Assembly (NCBI GenBank): GCA_025150425.1
Contig: CP102281.1
Coordinates: forward strand, 310,001 to 374,000
DNA length: 64,000 nucleotides
Origin: [Eubacterium] siraeum
GTDB lineage: Bacteria > Bacillota > Clostridia > Oscillospirales > Ruminococcaceae
Direction: 5' to 3'
Under the pieces are notes generated by a model. It did no database searches, was not told the DNA's origin, and saw nothing but the letters and a program-made list of their open reading frames with translations. This document shows positions 2 to 5,197 of the stretch, one piece after another. Position numbers and translations under genes: made by a program. Positions within the stretch are counted from its first letter, which is position 1; each line of letters begins with the position of its first letter.

Positions 2-2890
2 ATAAACACTACCGTAAAGGACTATATTGCTTCTTTCCCGAAGGAGCGTGCGCCGCAGGACAGAAGTGCGGAAAAGCAGGTAAAGGCCCACAGGGAAGCC
101 GTAAAGAGTATATTTGAGAAATATTTTATAAAGACCTGCGATAAGATAACCTCATTTGGAAGCGACATGGCGAAAAGCCTGCCTGCCGTAACTGCGCTTA
201 AAAATCTTGTACTGTGCTTTGACAAGGCATACAGTGCCGAAAAGCAGAGGCGTAACTGCGCCGACTTTTCCGATGCGGAAAGAGGAGTATATCGTATGCT
301 CTGCGAAAACGGCGAAAAGGTCCGTGAAAGAGCGGACTTCAGCCTTATCATTGTTGACGAGTTTCAGGACAGCAACAAGTTGCAGTACGAAATATTCAAA
401 ATGCTGACCGAAAACAAGCAGGGGCTGTATTTTGTCGGAGATATAAAGCAGTCGATATACGGCTTCAGAGGGGCACAGCCTTCTGTATTCTCGGCTATCT
501 GCAAATCGGACGATTTCGACAAGCTGCCGCTGAACGAAAATTTCCGCAGTAACAGGTGCGTTATCGACGGAATAAACACGCTGTTTGACAGAATGATGAC
601 AGAGGAGAACGGCGGTGTTGATTATGCGGAAAACGGCAGACTTATCTGCGGACTTGAAAAGGACAGCGACAGCCCGATTTCCGATGAGGACAAGACGGAG
701 GTCTGCATTGTTTCGGAGAAAGACAGAAAGAACGCAGTCGTTACTGAGGCGGCATATATTGCGGCAAGAATAAAGCAGATGATAGCACAGGGCTATAAGG
801 TCGGCAGTGACAAGCGTCCCTGTACCGAGGACGATTTTGCAATCATCATGCGTTCGCCTAAAAACCGCATTGCCGACTATGTCAATGTTCTCACCGCCAA
901 CGGACTGAATGTAACGTATAATCAGAGGGCGGTTCTGCTTGACCGACCTGAAATAAGACTTATGCTGTCGCTTCTCAAGGTCATAAACGACCCGTATAAC
1001 GACACCGAACTTGCAAAGGTGCTTATGTCACCGCTTTATTGCTTTACAGCCGATGATATGGCACGGCTCAGGACAGGAACATTCGGCTTTGACATAAGCA
1101 AAATCAGGGCGGAGTGTGCCGATGAACTTGAAAAATATTGTCTTGGTACAAAGGAAATTGTCGGAATGAAGAGAAAACCTCTTTACAGCTGTGTTATGCA
1201 GGCGGTGAGAGGCTACGATACATCGGAATACGAAAAACTCCATGAACTTACAAAGGATATAAAGCCCGATGCTAAATGTGCCGTATTTGTAAACGACCTT
1301 GACAGCTTCAGAAATGCCGCAACCGCTTCTTCACCTCAGGAACTTATCCGCAATATATATGACCGTATTTCAGCCGATGAACTGCTCAGTGTCGGTGACG
1401 ATCCGGCAACACGTCAGGCAAACCTTGAACTGCTCGTTTCATACGCCCGTGAGTATTCGGACTATAAGGACGGCGGTACGCTCGGCGACCTTATTTTCAA
1501 CCTCGAAAATATGAGCAGTCTTACTGCGGCACAGACGGCAGGCGGACACGGAGTAAAGATAATGTCAACGCATATGTCAAAGGGACTTCAGTTCCCCGTT
1601 GTATTTGTCGCAAACTGTGCATCGTCATTCAACGATGACGACTACACGGGCGATGTTGTGATAAGCGAGGAATATGCGGTAGCGTCAAAGAGTGTTGATA
1701 TTTCCACTATGAGCAAGATCCAGTCGCCTGCATATCATGCGGCGGCGCAGGAGGTAAAAAAACAGCTTGAGAGCGAGGAAATGCGACTGCTGTACGTTGC
1801 GGCGACAAGAGCCGAAAACAAGCTGATATTCACCGCCAATATTTCAAAGGCGTGTGATGAATATATGTCTGTGCTTGACGTAAACAGGGCAGGAAAAAAG
1901 GTCGGAAAGTGCAGCGGAAGCAGTTATCTTTCGTGGCTTATCGAGGTGCTGTCAGCCGAGTGCGATAAGGTAAACGATATGCAAAGCGGTATAATCGACT
2001 ACGGCGATGTAAGATATATCTTTTATCCGCTTGCATACGAAGGCGATGAACACAGCCTCACAATTCCTGCACTTAATACGGGGGCGGAAAATGCCGATGA
2101 ATATACAGATGATAAAAATAACGACAGCACTGACATTGCCGTTGACGAACAGTTCAGAAGCGAGCTTGAGAAAAAGCTCAATGCGGCATACGCATATGAG
2201 CCGCTGACGAAAATTTCCGCAAAATTTACAGCTACCGAACTTGCGGCTAATCTCAGAGAAAAAAACGGCGAGGAAAACTACGGCCTGTTTATAGGAAAGC
2301 CTTCATTCCTAACCGAAAACAATACGGGCAAACTCAGCGGAAAGCGCCGTGGTGACGCATATCATAAGTTGATGGAGCATATACCTTTTGAGAAAATACT
2401 CAGCGAGGACGAAATCAGTGACTATATCAAAAACAGTACCGCAGGTTTTCTTGACAAGGCAGAGCAAAACAGCATAGACGCAGGCAATATAGCGGGATTC
2501 TACGGAAATGACGTTGCGAAGCGTATTGTGCAGGCAAGTAAGAACGGAAAGCTGTACAGGGAGTATCCTATTTTCCACAGGCTTGACACGCAGTGCTACG
2601 ATCCTGCGATATTCGGGGCGGACAGCCGTGAAATGCTTGAGGGCGCAGAGCCTTATGTACAGGGTATAGCCGATATGTTCTTTATCGAAGATGACGGTAT
2701 AGTGCTGGTCGATTACAAGACTGACAAAACGGACGATGAGCAGAAATACAAGGACGATTATAAGTTACAGCTTGATATATATAAAGAGGCACTGGAGAAG
2801 GAATTTTCCGTGCCGGTAAAGCAGATGATAATATACTCGTTTACGCTCGGACGTTTCATTGATCTTGAAAAACCGGAGGAAAACAAATAA
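2..2890 (+). CDS. addA: AddA helicase-nuclease subunit, 5' partial
   Basis: This is the C-terminal part of the ATP-dependent helicase/exonuclease subunit A, which with AddB resects double-strand breaks and degrades linear foreign DNA. The frame is open from base 2, so the start and the Walker A motif lie outside the window; about 960 residues are visible, against roughly 1200 for the family. Visible superfamily 1 motifs are DEFQD (motif II, about 356-370), LNENFRSN (about 532-555), STHMSKGLQFP (motif V, about 1565) and LLYVAATRAENK (motif VI, about 1786). The C-terminal RecB-type nuclease motif VDYKTDK lies near 2708-2728. All catalytic motifs in the visible part look intact. The stop codon overlaps the next start (TAATG), so the downstream Abi gene is translationally coupled. 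The upstream neighbour is probably addB (inference). Confidence 0.96.
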   Translation: MNTTVKDYIASFPKERAPQDRSAEKQVKAHREAVKSIFEKYFIKTCDKITSFGSDMAKSLPAVTALKNLVLCFDKAYSAEKQRRNCADFSDAERGVYRMLCENGEKVRERADFSLIIVDEFQDSNKLQYEIFKMLTENKQGLYFVGDIKQSIYGFRGAQPSVFSAICKSDDFDKLPLNENFRSNRCVIDGINTLFDRMMTEENGGVDYAENGRLICGLEKDSDSPISDEDKTEVCIVSEKDRKNAVVTEAAYIAARIKQMIAQGYKVGSDKRPCTEDDFAIIMRSPKNRIADYVNVLTANGLNVTYNQRAVLLDRPEIRLMLSLLKVINDPYNDTELAKVLMSPLYCFTADDMARLRTGTFGFDISKIRAECADELEKYCLGTKEIVGMKRKPLYSCVMQAVRGYDTSEYEKLHELTKDIKPDAKCAVFVNDLDSFRNAATASSPQELIRNIYDRISADELLSVGDDPATRQANLELLVSYAREYSDYKDGGTLGDLIFNLENMSSLTAAQTAGGHGVKIMSTHMSKGLQFPVVFVANCASSFNDDDYTGDVVISEEYAVASKSVDISTMSKIQSPAYHAAAQEVKKQLESEEMRLLYVAATRAENKLIFTANISKACDEYMSVLDVNRAGKKVGKCSGSSYLSWLIEVLSAECDKVNDMQSGIIDYGDVRYIFYPLAYEGDEHSLTIPALNTGAENADEYTDDKNNDSTDIAVDEQFRSELEKKLNAAYAYEPLTKISAKFTATELAANLREKNGEENYGLFIGKPSFLTENNTGKLSGKRRGDAYHKLMEHIPFEKILSEDEISDYIKNSTAGFLDKAEQNSIDAGNIAGFYGNDVAKRIVQASKNGKLYREYPIFHRLDTQCYDPAIFGADSREMLEGAEPYVQGIADMFFIEDDGIVLVDYKTDKTDDEQKYKDDYKLQLDIYKEALEKEFSVPVKQMIIYSFTLGRFIDLEKPEENK

Positions 2891-3738
2891 TGCAGTTCAA
2901 CAAAACGCCTGCTACCATAAAACAGCAGATCGAGATACTGAGGCAGAGAGGCTGTATAATAGATGATGAGGAGTATGCAAGAAAGTGCCTTACAAATATC
3001 AACTATTACCGGCTTGCCTATTACTTTGCGCCGTTTCTGGAGCGTAAGGGCAAGTACAGGGACGGTACGACCTTTGAGCAGATAATGAAGGTCTATGATT
3101 TTGACAGGGTACTGCGCCGTATGCTGATGACATATCTTGAGGAAATCGAGATCTCAATGAGGGCGATAATCTCAAATTATCACGCTATGAAGTACGGGGC
3201 ACTGGGCTATCTCAATGCTTCGGGATTTGATCCGCATCATAACCATCAGGCGTTTTTGTCGAAGATAGAGCGGCTTATCGAGGCAAACGAGAACGAGGAA
3301 TTCGTAAAGCACCACAAGAAAAAGTACGGCGGTATAATGCCGGTGTGGGCGGCTGTAGAGCTGTTCAGCTTCGGAACGCTGACATATTTTCTGATAGATA
3401 TGAAATCTGCGGATAAGAAGGATATGGTTTCACAGCATTTTGATCTTAACTACAGAACGGTAGAGGACAGGATGCTGTGCCTGTCAGATCTCAGGAACGT
3501 GTGTGCTCATTATACGAGATTATATGAGAATCCGTTCCCGAATGCGCCGAAAAGCTCGGATGGACTTGGCTTTGAGCCTGACAATACGCTTAAATCCTAT
3601 ATGGCGGTGGCAAGGTCGCTCTATCCCGATAAATATAAGTGGGAGAATGAGTTTATACCTGCTGTTGCCAATCTTATTGACGAGTACGGGATGATAGATT
3701 ATATGAGCGGATACGGGTTTAAAAAGAAAACAACGTAA
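2890..3738 (+). CDS. Abi (AbiD/AbiF-type) HEPN abortive-infection protein
   Basis: This 282-residue protein matches the Abi_2/AbiD-AbiF family of abortive infection proteins, which carry a HEPN-type RNase fold. The N-terminus has the typical INYYRLAYY segment (about residues 37-45). The C-terminal part holds LRNVCAHYTRLYEN, giving the HEPN motif R-x4-H (R202, N203, H207), so the presumed RNase centre is intact. No transmembrane segment is seen. The ATG overlaps the addA stop by one base (TAATG), with GGAGG at about 2876-2880 inside addA. Abi toxins are usually solitary or paired with an antitoxin; here no protein antitoxin follows, but a highly structured RNA-like region lies directly downstream. 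Family assignment is from motif recognition. The role as a phage-triggered guard linked to AddAB is inference. Confidence 0.88.
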   Translation: MQFNKTPATIKQQIEILRQRGCIIDDEEYARKCLTNINYYRLAYYFAPFLERKGKYRDGTTFEQIMKVYDFDRVLRRMLMTYLEEIEISMRAIISNYHAMKYGALGYLNASGFDPHHNHQAFLSKIERLIEANENEEFVKHHKKKYGGIMPVWAAVELFSFGTLTYFLIDMKSADKKDMVSQHFDLNYRTVEDRMLCLSDLRNVCAHYTRLYENPFPNAPKSSDGLGFEPDNTLKSYMAVARSLYPDKYKWENEFIPAVANLIDEYGMIDYMSGYGFKKKTT

Positions 3739-3747
3739 TGATAAAAA

Positions 3748-3780
3748 GAAGCGGAGCGTGGGTTTCACGCTCCGCTTTTT
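3748..3780 (+). terminator. Terminator of the addA-abi operon
   Basis: A 10-bp GC-rich stem (3751-3760 with 3766-3775) with a GGTTT loop is followed by TTTTT. The 31 bases at 3749-3779 recur exactly at 4287-4317. Confidence 0.9.
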
Positions 3781-3802
3781 GCAGAAATGTCTTTTATTTG
3801 AT

Positions 3803-4151
3803 GTGCTGTGCTTCTGCTATATTGTTCAGTTCTGACTATGATAGCAAGCTACCGATAGTGCTATTTGTCGGACAGCACTTCTCGGGTTCGCTATTCGAGT
3901 GGGTACACCTGTCAATATGAAAGAGGGAGACAACCAAAGGGATCAGGACAAGGGACTTGACAGCCCCTCTCCCTGTCCCTTAGGTTTTCTCCCTCTTGGC
4001 TCCCTCTTTCCTTACCCATACCCACACCCCGTCGGGGTGTTGGAGGAACTCGAATAGCCACCTGAACATTGTACATCCTGTCAATGCAGGGACGCTTAAC
4101 GCTACACGTCCGCAGGTTAGTACATATATCTCAGGTTAGTAGCGTTTTTTT
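3803..4151 (+). ncRNA. Candidate structured RNA downstream of abi
   Basis: This ORF-less stretch contains a dense set of complementary segments: 3803-3809 with 3872-3878, enclosing 3841-3846 with 3859-3864; 3890-3900 with 4048-4058 (11 bp); 3899-3905 with 4019-4025; a long arm 3921-3942 with 3976-3997 (about 20 of 22 paired; 3919-3928 can alternatively pair with 4001-4010); and the perfect 7-bp hairpin 4024-4030/4034-4040. It ends with 4098-4105 paired to 4139-4146, running into seven T (4145-4151), which looks like a Rho-independent end. A direct repeat CAGGTTAGTA occurs at 4113 and 4132. A weak promoter-like pair TTGATG-16-TATTGT lies at 3798-3825. It could be a free RNA, a partner of the Abi protein, or a non-coding mobile element. 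I cannot assign it to a known RNA family. Confidence 0.5.
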
Positions 4152-4286
4152 GAAAGGTCAATGTCAGTGCAGTTGCAATGATAATGTCACGAAAATATTA
4201 ACTCCTTGTCGGTACGGGAAGCGTTTTCGGTGGTGTTGGCGATATATTTCGCTGTACAGCTTTAATAATCTGGTTTTAGATAGATA

Positions 4287-4317
4287 AAGCGGAGCGTGGG
4301 TTTCACGCTCCGCTTTT
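4287..4317. terminator. Bidirectional terminator copy, ends galU
   Basis: This is an exact copy of the 31-bp hairpin at 3749-3779. It has A-rich and T-rich flanks, so it can work in both directions, and it lies just past the galU stop codon on the minus strand. Confidence 0.85.
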
Positions 4318-4327
4318 GTTGTTATAT

Positions 4328-5197
4328 TTATATATCCAGCGTCTTAAGATATGCCCTGAAATCCTCGCCTATCTCGGGGTGATTCAGTGCAACCTCAACA
4401 CAGGCCTTCATTATGCCGAGCTTGTTGCCCATATCATAACGTGTGCCGGTGAAGTCAACGCCCACCATACCCTCGCTCTTTGCAAGCTGTTTCATAGCAT
4501 CGGTAAGCTGATATTCGCCGCCTGCGCCTGTCGGGAGGGTTGCGAGAATATCGAATATCTTAGCAGGAAGAACGCATCTGCCGAGTATGGCGAAGTTTGA
4601 GATCACTTCCTCGGGCTTGGGCTTTTCGATCATATCCGAAATGCTGTAGAGGTTGTCTTCAAGTGGCTTTACGTCAAGCGTGCAATATTTCAGCACAAGC
4701 TCAAACGGAACTTCCTTCATACTTACGACAGCCTTGCCGTACTTCTCGTACGCTCTGCAGCACTGTGCCGTGCAGGGATCGTCACCGATTATAACATCGT
4801 CGCCGTAGATAACTACGAAGGGATCGTTTCCGACAAACTGCTTTGCATACATAACAGCGCCGCCTGTGCCGTTCTGCATCTGCTGACGGACGTAGGTGAT
4901 GTTCTTGCCCATTTCGGCAATGTCGCATACTACCTTGTAGAATTCTGTCTTTCCGCCTGCAAGGAGCTGAGCCTCAAGATCGGGCTTGCGGTCGAAGTGA
5001 TCCTCGACCTCCTGCTTGCCTCTCGACAGAACTATCAGTATCTCTGTTATGCCTGAGTTTATGACTTCCTCAACGATATACTGTATAGCGGGCTTGTCGA
5101 CAATATTCAGCATTTCCTTCGGAATAGCCTTACTTGCAGGGAGAACTCGTGTTCCGAAGCCTGCGGCGAGTATTACTGCCTTTTTAACTTTTTCCAT
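4328..5197 (-). CDS. galU: UTP-glucose-1-phosphate uridylyltransferase
   Basis: This 289-residue protein makes UDP-glucose from UTP and glucose 1-phosphate, feeding cell-surface glycan and glycolipid synthesis in the cytoplasm. The nucleotidyltransferase signature is at the N-terminus: AAGFGTRVLPASKAIPKEM (about residues 11-29), with the GxGTR loop at 13-17 and Lys27 in the PK pair. Further family blocks are DKPAIQYIVEE, VIYGDD (metal/nucleotide region) and GEYQLTDA. Length is typical of bacterial GalU. An AAGGACAGG ribosome site precedes the ATG. The gene is about 140 bases downstream of the SCP2-like gene on the same strand, with a hairpin between them. No clear promoter was found in that gap, so expression may partly come from read-through. 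Confidence 0.96.
   Translation of the reverse strand: MEKVKKAVILAAGFGTRVLPASKAIPKEMLNIVDKPAIQYIVEEVINSGITEILIVLSRGKQEVEDHFDRKPDLEAQLLAGGKTEFYKVVCDIAEMGKNITYVRQQMQNGTGGAVMYAKQFVGNDPFVVIYGDDVIIGDDPCTAQCCRAYEKYGKAVVSMKEVPFELVLKYCTLDVKPLEDNLYSISDMIEKPKPEEVISNFAILGRCVLPAKIFDILATLPTGAGGEYQLTDAMKQLAKSEGMVGVDFTGTRYDMGNKLGIMKACVEVALNHPEIGEDFRAYLKTLDI

What the first reader, a model, noticed from the sequence alone, without database searches (positions are those of the whole stretch)
3781..4151. Dense, terminator-ended RNA structure beside the Abi gene
At least seven complementary stems, including a 22-base near-perfect arm, are packed in about 350 bases with no ORF, and the region ends in a stem plus seven T. 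An RNA partner or antitoxin for the Abi HEPN nuclease is possible; I recall, without being able to check, reports that AbiF-type proteins pair with structured RNAs. A non-coding mobile RNA element is the main alternative.
Basis: partly seen in the sequence, partly recalled or inferred. Interest (0 to 1): 0.72.

Follow-up and report, generated by a model that had tools for sequence, protein, structure and literature searches.

The report
Mobile hairpin element inside duplicated terminator
The dense folded sequence next to the Abi gene is one of about forty copies of a non-coding jumping element that appears to have landed in a transcription terminator and doubled it; it is very unlikely to be an RNA partner of the Abi protein, but it carries an unusual hairpin also found in related gut and rumen bacteria.

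Summary
The structure is real, but very unlikely to be an Abi RNA. Window ~3781-4286 is one copy of a dispersed ~500-bp non-coding repeat (67 BLAST pieces in the 2.69-Mb genome; 40 places aligned). Its ends are short inverted repeats like those of an IS1182-family element with an open transposase frame in another genome of the order. It sits between two identical 31-nt terminator hairpins (3749-3779, 4287-4317). In 19 of 40 copies the flanks form a direct repeat (17 of the 19 a stable hairpin, specific to the site), against 6 of 1560 mismatched flank pairs. Best reading: an IS1182-type MITE that targets terminator-like hairpins and duplicates them. The element was found in none of 40 other genomes, though an abi relative is in 24 of 25 same-genus genomes. 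Its central hairpin belongs to a wider dispersed family, mostly in Oscillospiraceae/Ruminococcus records (66 of 80 titles shown), without Rfam match. Stem pairs covary, and a purine mirror repeat beside the stem tends to change with it, which fits a class I intrastrand DNA triplex on the minus strand. Function, transposase and triplex formation are untested.

The parts
3749..3779 (.). First copy of the 31-nt terminator hairpin (AAGCGGAGCGTG-GGTTT-CACGCTCCGCTTTT) just after the abi stop codon
   Evidence: Exact 31-nt repeat, two copies in the window; terminator scan
3781..4286 (.). Dispersed ~500-bp non-coding element (MITE-like); edges good to a few bases, this copy's ends are somewhat decayed
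   Evidence: Alignment of 40 copies; 67 BLAST pieces in own genome
3777..3795 (+). 5' terminal inverted repeat (consensus CAGTTTGTAGAAAAAGTC)
   Evidence: Left edge; decayed in this copy
4268..4286 (-). 3' terminal inverted repeat (consensus ...CGGTTTTTCGACAGACTGA)
   Evidence: Right edge; 55 matches of this end (up to 3 mismatches) in own genome, 0 for the reversed control pattern
3919..4017 (-). Conserved hairpin motif; motif strand is the minus strand
   Evidence: Covariance model R1 and its hits in other genera; covariation
4000..4009 (-). Mirror arm AAAGAGGGAG, candidate third (reverse-Hoogsteen) strand
   Evidence: Perfect 10-nt mirror repeat with 3986-3995 (copy L001 = window copy)
3986..3995 (-). 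Mirror arm GAGGGAGAAA, purine strand of the outer stem
3919..3935 (-). Pyrimidine strand of the outer stem (GGTTGTCTCCCTCTTTC on the minus strand)
4098..4151 (+). Internal stem AACGCTAC...GTAGCGTT followed by T7, present in most of the copies printed
4287..4317 (.). Second, identical copy of the terminator hairpin, next to the 3' end of the convergent nucleotidyl-transferase gene (4328-5197, minus)
2890..3738 (+). Abi_2/AbiD-family gene; neighbour, not part of the element
   Evidence: Pfam PF07751 E 5.1e-49; PADLOC AbiD E 1.1e-84

Best explanation
A non-autonomous transposon (MITE) of IS1182 type. [quoted passage not shown] The copy therefore lies between two terminators: it breaks no gene and should be shielded from read-through on both sides. 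Inside it rides a dispersed hairpin module whose minus strand could fold as hairpin plus mirrored purine third strand (class I intrastrand triplex); the exchange of arms and interiors among copies suggests recombination or gene conversion. Shown: copy number, ends, duplicated flanking hairpins, the same ends and duplication around one IS1182 element with an open frame, stem covariation, mirror symmetry in many but not all copies. Inferred: the transposase family acting here, the joining events, folding in the cell, any effect on the host.
For: Copies: 67 BLAST pieces, some of them inverted matches of hairpins to themselves; 40 places aligned. Flanks: 19 of 40 score >=15 as a direct repeat, control 6 of 1560 mismatched pairs, five of them involving copy L013, whose 3' flank holds a second element end. 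With regex-based end detection 13 of 40 copies qualified and 11 of the 13 had the repeat, against 0 of 156 mismatched pairs. Nested case: three copies of one hairpin separate a ~550-bp and a ~170-bp element, as after two insertions at one terminator. Other loci with the same 3' end: of 30 loci fetched out of 55 matches, 23 are not the 500-bp family, and 15 of these 23 show a repeat scoring >=18 (no shuffle control; one of the 15, L059, is not a hairpin). Sibling species: 7 of 14 fetched loci (all 7 from G024 and G018). A named relative, L246, also shows a near-identical hairpin on both sides (my reading). IS1182 element with open frame: L068 (512 aa) with ends CAGACTGTCGAAAAAC/CAGACTGTCGAAGAAC between two ~35-nt hairpin copies. 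Orientation: the gene on the element's right points at it in 22 of 25 cases, 2 more of the 27 undetermined (p 1.6e-4). Literature model: PMC5678879 draws whole-hairpin duplication as pathway b of structure-targeted transposition (passage). Mirror symmetry follows the stem: 77.9% identity at five unconstrained positions against 50.1% after re-pairing, 0 of 2000 as high.
Against: 21 of 40 copies gave no flanking repeat; some are truncated or abut other repeats, and one of the 21 (L009_1200) shows a 32-nt repeat. Two of the 19 repeats are weak or no hairpins (L020, L021). No intact IS1182 transposase was found in the own genome: NF033551 gives only weak, broken pieces, PF13751 none. Among the transposase loci examined, L069 and L070 (long open frames) have other ends and no hairpin repeat, and L071, L077, L086 show no hairpin repeat; L079 and L074/L080 have similar ends followed by a hairpin at each end, but the two hairpins differ. 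No empty site was recovered. IS1272, a studied family member, removes its target hairpin and makes no duplication.
Confidence: 0.77

Rival explanations
1. A functional structured RNA transcribed from the minus strand and carried by the MITE.
For: Stem covariation: 95.4% of cells paired and 171 both-side changes in 44 sequences, shuffle means 80.4% and 44, maxima 82.1% and 67. On the motif strand G.T mismatches exceed A.C: 159:74 in 88 hairpins; 104:40, 37:14 and 14:4 in 61, 20 and 9 cluster representatives; 36:0 in 14 own and 15:8 in 31 other-genus copies (read on the motif strand). The gene next to the element in the own genome usually points the same way as this strand.
Against: In the model-based alignment my own tally of its table gives motif-strand G.T 25, A.C 36 (14 of them at one position), so the asymmetry is not robust; single positions supply 29 of the 104 G.T and 21 of the 40 A.C. 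In other genomes the motif is not oriented to genes (26 co-directional, 26 opposite). One promoter-like site against 1.5 expected, and it lies outside the element. No Rfam match. Purine-motif triplexes cannot form in RNA (stated in PMC4666352), so the mirror repeat favours DNA. The alignment was fitted to the structure and its 44 rows were picked from 72 by a sense-strand filter.
Confidence: 0.13
2. A REP/BIME-like element whose hairpins are moved as single-stranded DNA by a Y1 (HUH) transposase.
For: Inverted doublets of the motif within 130 nt in 8 of 37 loci outside the own genome (my reading; L127 and L293 look like one region); AGGAAAG at the hairpin foot (where the search pattern fixes it; seen also in other copies); possible strand-specific wobble. 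Two of the seven Y1_Tnp genes of the own genome lie ~0.4 and ~1.0 kb from copies of the element.
Against: Y1_Tnp occurs in 3 of 10 motif carriers and 6 of 17 genomes taken as non-carriers. ORF clusters beside the motif, judged by eye without a library, showed no transposase (its largest cluster, 24 ORFs in 21 loci, was not identified). The window copy has inverted-repeat ends and hairpin duplication instead. Reverse transcriptase is no better linked (4 of 10, 6 of 17).
Confidence: 0.07
3. RNA antitoxin or RNA partner of the Abi HEPN protein, as first proposed.
For: Adjacency at this one site; AbiF-type proteins do pair with structured RNAs (PMC12373285, abstract and passages).
Against: Some 40 copies elsewhere, not found in relatives that keep an abi gene, separated from abi by a terminator hairpin, no RF03085 match. 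The second Abi_2-like gene of this genome lies ~5.5 kb from the nearest of 28 copies compared; an end of one of the shorter elements lies ~1.9 kb from it.
Confidence: 0.02

Closest known systems
IS1272 / TnSha1 (IS1182 family, staphylococci)
   Same: DDE-type IS family that targets inverted repeats, several of them transcription terminators, without sequence specificity (PMC5678879: abstract, section 22, passages; PMC4923244: passages)
   Different: IS1272 removes the hairpin and makes no target duplication; here the whole hairpin is duplicated, the element is a non-coding MITE, and it contains a triplex-type hairpin
BoxC / PIT / TM intrastrand triplex repeats (PMC4666352: abstract, sections 3 part 1 and 15, passages)
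   Same: Dispersed motif with purine mirror arm plus purine/pyrimidine hairpin; domain order as class I
   Different: That search used loops of 1-6 nt; here ~50 nt of further stem and loop lie between purine and pyrimidine strands, the motif occurs inside different larger elements, and a term search of that text found no Ruminococc-, Clostridi- or Faecalibacterium
REP/BIME repeats
   Same: Intergenic hairpins, single or in inverted doublets (definition as in PMC4666352)
   Different: Much longer hairpin, no Y1 transposase link found
abiF RNA motif (RF03085) / RCd22
   Same: Structured sequence beside an Abi_2 gene
   Different: No Rfam match; not co-conserved with abi; dispersed; conserved motif on the other strand

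Membership tests
IS1182-type MITE | Terminal inverted repeats shared with an IS1182 element | tested here: met
   Ends resemble those of L068; imperfect, and that element is from another genus of the order
IS1182-type MITE | No transposase gene, multi-copy | tested here: met
IS1182-type MITE | Palindromic/hairpin target | tested here: met
   17 of 40 copies flanked by a stable repeated hairpin; 21 of 40 without a repeat in that call
IS1182-type MITE | Intact cognate transposase in the same genome | tested here: not met
   Only weak broken NF033551 pieces, no PF13751; not required of an old MITE
IS1272 mode of insertion | Target hairpin removed, no duplication | tested here: not met
   Whole hairpin present on both sides
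Class I intrastrand triplex motif | Order: mirrored purine strand, purine strand, pyrimidine strand on one strand | tested here: met
   Window copy; family. Mixed across copies: at most 2 of 200 shuffles as good in 6 of 7 own and 6 of 23 other-genus strings
Class I intrastrand triplex motif | Loops of 1-6 nt (criteria of PMC4666352) | tested here: not met
   Linker 4 nt, but purine and pyrimidine strands are ~50 nt apart, with stem and loop between
Class I intrastrand triplex motif | Triplex forms physically | not testable with these tools
   needs CD, NMR or DMS footprint
abiF RNA / RNA antitoxin | Match to RF03085 | tested here: not met
abiF RNA / RNA antitoxin | Co-conserved next to abi | tested here: not met
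   (sequence comparison and reading; no structure search beyond 120 nt there)
abiF RNA / RNA antitoxin | Transcript binds the Abi protein | not testable with these tools
   no RNA or pull-down data
REP/BIME | Associated Y1 transposase (RAYT) | tested here: not met
   3 of 10 carriers against 6 of 17 taken as non-carriers

The most novel reading that the evidence does not exclude
Two linked novelties: (a) mobile elements that target intrinsic terminators by shape and duplicate the entire hairpin, the hypothetical pathway b of PMC5678879 caught in nature; (b) a family of dispersed, strand-specific class I triplex hairpins across Oscillospiraceae/Ruminococcus whose mirror strand and stem co-evolve, so that a three-stranded fold, not just a hairpin, is under selection in the cell.
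Probability: 0.3. Interest if true: 0.75.

Novelty: new variant of a known kind. Interest (0 to 1): 0.5.

Why it matters
If right, it gives natural evidence for shape-directed transposition with duplication of a whole terminator, a way for an element to spread without breaking genes or transcription units. Co-variation of a mirror strand with its stem would make the question whether intrastrand DNA triplexes matter in cells testable on many natural variants. It also warns against reading a dense fold next to a defence gene as an RNA antitoxin.

Tried and rejected
Rfam at permissive threshold gave 36 matches, none near its family's gathering score, mostly microRNA-type hairpins. GU/AC counts on own copies alone were few or flat (9:6; 2:2, 1:4, 0:1 and none in the domains). 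A pseudoknot between hairpin loop and upstream stretch looked striking in a few loci (12-16 nt in L197, L198, L286, L299, L249, G.T allowed) but is not general: 14 of 83 exceed the 95% shuffle level against 8% of 5882 mismatched pairs. A regular expression for inverted doublets was too strict and found none; doublets were then read. The gene-orientation bias holds in the own genome but not elsewhere. Viral contigs gave 7 pattern hits, none with the hairpin on reading. Elements carrying the motif in G103 and G132 have other edges, with no IS1182-type inverted repeats that I could see. The mirror test is mixed: at most 2 of 200 shuffles as good in 6 of 7 own and 6 of 23 other-genus strings; and a plain direct repeat explains part of it (mean matches of 7: mirror 5.89, direct 4.93). 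The pattern fixes part of the mirror, so only unconstrained positions were used for the re-pairing test; its 28 strings may include a few chance hits. Counts from whole-genome searches are lower bounds, since only part of the first-look candidates was scored. On recheck I lowered the probability of the most novel case from 0.35 to 0.3 because of the mixed mirror results. Literature searches; two returned no paper. Seen: PMC12373285 (abstract, passages), PMC5678879 (abstract, section 22, passages), PMC4923244, PMC3196728 and PMC10969869 (passages), PMC4666352 (abstract, sections 3 part 1 and 15, passages); the rest only as listings. Nothing seen there describes this element; most subscription papers are not held.

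Full report
WHAT WAS SEEN. The region 3781-4151 does fold far better than shuffled sequence (z -7.65), but so does its complement (z -7.50), and the strongest part is one hairpin within 3919-4012. Upstream lies an Abi_2/AbiD-family gene, downstream on the other strand a nucleotidyl-transferase gene (UTP-glucose-1-phosphate uridylyltransferase is my inference). Rfam has no match in the window at gathering threshold.

IT IS A DISPERSED REPEAT. A search of the own genome (one 2.69-Mb contig) with 3740-4340 gave 67 matching pieces at 68-100% identity, the weakest of them inverted matches of hairpins to themselves (40 of 57 first-look candidates were scored, so this is a lower bound). I took stretches around the hits and aligned 40 places; after dropping 12 hybrid or truncated ones by eye, 28 were used for core comparisons. 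The common unit is ~3781-4286. Its ends are imperfect inverted repeats, consensus CAGTTTGTAGAAAAA on the left and CAGTCTGTCGAAAAA read inward from the right. The right end, with up to 3 mismatches, occurs 55 times in the genome and 0 times for the reversed control; some of these belong to other, shorter elements with the same ends. Of 27 copies examined none overlaps an ORF of 150 aa or more.

IT SITS IN A DUPLICATED TERMINATOR. In the window the same 31-nt hairpin, AAGCGGAGCGTGGGTTTCACGCTCCGCTTTT, stands on both sides (3749-3779, 4287-4317) and is reported by the terminator scan. The same arrangement holds elsewhere with a different hairpin at each site: 19 of 40 copies have a flanking direct repeat scoring 15 or more; 6 of 1560 mismatched flank pairs do, five of them involving copy L013, whose 3' flank holds a second element end. 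The repeats are 21-45 nt; 17 of the 19 fold at -14 kcal/mol or better, L020 is weak (-4.1) and L021 (-3.5) is not terminator-like. That the others are terminators is read from their stem and T-run, not tested one by one. The 45-nt case includes part of the neighbouring element. With a regex-based end search 13 copies qualified and 11 had the repeat, one of them (L009_1200) missed; control 0 of 156. The 21 copies without a repeat are counted as misses; some are truncated or abut other repeats. In L056/L013 three copies of one hairpin separate two different elements, as expected from two successive insertions. Of 14 stretches fetched from three species of the genus, 7 (in G024 and G018) show ~240-315-bp elements with related ends and the same repeat; five more of these two species run into contig ends and the two of G014 show none. 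In another, named assembly L246 shows a near-identical hairpin on both sides (my reading).

WHICH FAMILY. An IS1182-family transposase gene with an open 512-aa frame in a genome of the same order (L068) has ends CAGACTGTCGAAAAAC / CAGACTGTCGAAGAAC and is flanked by two near-identical ~35-nt hairpins. Other transposase loci are mixed: L069 and L070 (long open frames) have different ends and no hairpin repeat; L079 and L074/L080 have similar ends with a hairpin after each, but the two hairpins differ. In the own genome only weak, broken pieces of such a gene were found, so this is an old, orphaned MITE family or one moved by an unrecognised enzyme. Age is also suggested by L020 and L289: two species share flanking sequence at what looks like one insertion site (my reading). 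IS1272, of the same IS family, also targets hairpins, several of them terminators, but removes them and makes no duplication (PMC5678879, PMC4923244). [quoted passage not shown] the present copies look like that outcome.

NOT AN ABI RNA. The 505-bp element was found by DNA comparison in 1 of 41 genomes, the own one, while an abi relative is in 24 of the 25 same-genus genomes, own included. In 13 relatives' loci I read 330 nt after abi, five of them keeping the helicase-abi order: a simple hairpin or the next gene follows, nothing like the element; folding was done there on 120 nt only. The genome's other Abi_2-like gene is ~5.5 kb from the nearest of 28 copies compared, and ~1.9 kb from an end of one of the shorter elements.

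THE HAIRPIN INSIDE IS A WIDER FAMILY. Part of the element (query 146-250) matched 7 of 395 other genomes of the family, from three other genera; an eighth match, 27 nt elsewhere in the query, is probably chance (two candidates scored per genome). A covariance model of 3919-4017 (R1) hit 4 of 119 genomes (own plus three genera), with 2 to 31 matches each, those of the own genome including antisense ones. A pattern scan of named genomes returned 116 stretches; of the 80 titles shown 66 are Oscillospiraceae, Ruminococcus or other Clostridia-type assemblies, many from rumen, and 14 look like chance. 88 distinct hairpins remained after dropping 17 hits without a hairpin and 10 truncated. In 44 distinct sense sequences, picked from 72 aligned rows, the 24 stem pairs are paired in 95.4% of cells with 171 both-side changes; shuffles reach at most 82.1% and 67, slid structures at most 64.4% and 29 (the alignment was fitted to the structure). 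8 of 37 loci outside the own genome hold a second, inverted copy within 130 nt, two of them apparently the same region. The motif is carried by different larger elements in different genera and shows no preferred orientation to genes there (26:26), whereas in the own genome the gene on the element's right points at it in 22 of 25, so that bias belongs to the MITE's insertion, not to the motif.

WHAT THE HAIRPIN MAY BE. On the minus strand it reads AAAGAGGGAG-CCAA-GAGGGAGAAAACC ... GGTTGTCTCCCTC: a perfect 10-nt purine mirror repeat next to a purine/pyrimidine stem. That is the domain order of a class I intrastrand triplex as defined in PMC4666352. Across the family the mirror arm tends to change with the stem: 77.9% identity at five unconstrained positions against 50.1% when re-paired, 0 of 2000 as high (28 distinct strings). 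Against this, a plain direct repeat also matches part of the arm (mirror 5.89, direct 4.93 of 7), and string by string the mirror is strong (at most 2 of 200 shuffles as good) in 6 of 7 own but only 6 of 23 other-genus cases. Mismatches in the stem tend to be G.T rather than A.C on this strand, which would fit strand-specific folding as DNA or RNA, but my tally does not show it. I therefore rate the triplex as a candidate, not as shown.

CONCLUSION. Ordinary in kind (a MITE), unusual in two respects (whole-terminator duplication; mirror-plus-hairpin cargo), and, on this evidence, unrelated to the Abi gene beyond having landed in the terminator between it and its convergent neighbour.

Noticed in passing
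window 167-3738: The abi gene overlaps the stop of the upstream UvrD/PD-(D/E)XK helicase-nuclease gene, and helicase then abi is kept in five relatives (L097-L101). Abi carries RNVCAH, which fits the HEPN R-x4-H motif.
   Followed up: partly
L056 (reverse complement) 725-1547: Three copies of one terminator hairpin separated by two different elements: stacked insertions in one terminator.
   Followed up: yes
L068 1357 and 2914: The two hairpin copies around the IS1182 element differ at the loop centre (GA against TC), as if the loop were inverted; could be a trace of hairpin processing.
   Followed up: no
L009 1200-1682, L012 3910-4711, L030, L032, L034: A second subfamily keeps one or both outer regions of the element but has a different, repeat-rich interior: modular exchange between copies.
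   Followed up: no
L197, L198, L286, L299, L249: Hairpin loop perfectly or nearly complementary (12-16 nt, G.T allowed) to a stretch upstream of AGGAAAG: pseudoknot-like, only in some subfamilies.
   Followed up: partly
G000:C1:1294313-1294669 and 1336186-1336542: Two of the seven Y1_Tnp genes of the own genome lie about 1.0 and 0.4 kb from copies of the element.
   Followed up: no
L191, L249, L251: Three contigs share several ORFs next to the motif that look phage-like by eye; not checked with any library.
   Followed up: no
G024 contig ends: Many contigs of this sibling species begin or end at the same element end, suggesting a longer multi-copy element that breaks the assembly.
   Followed up: partly
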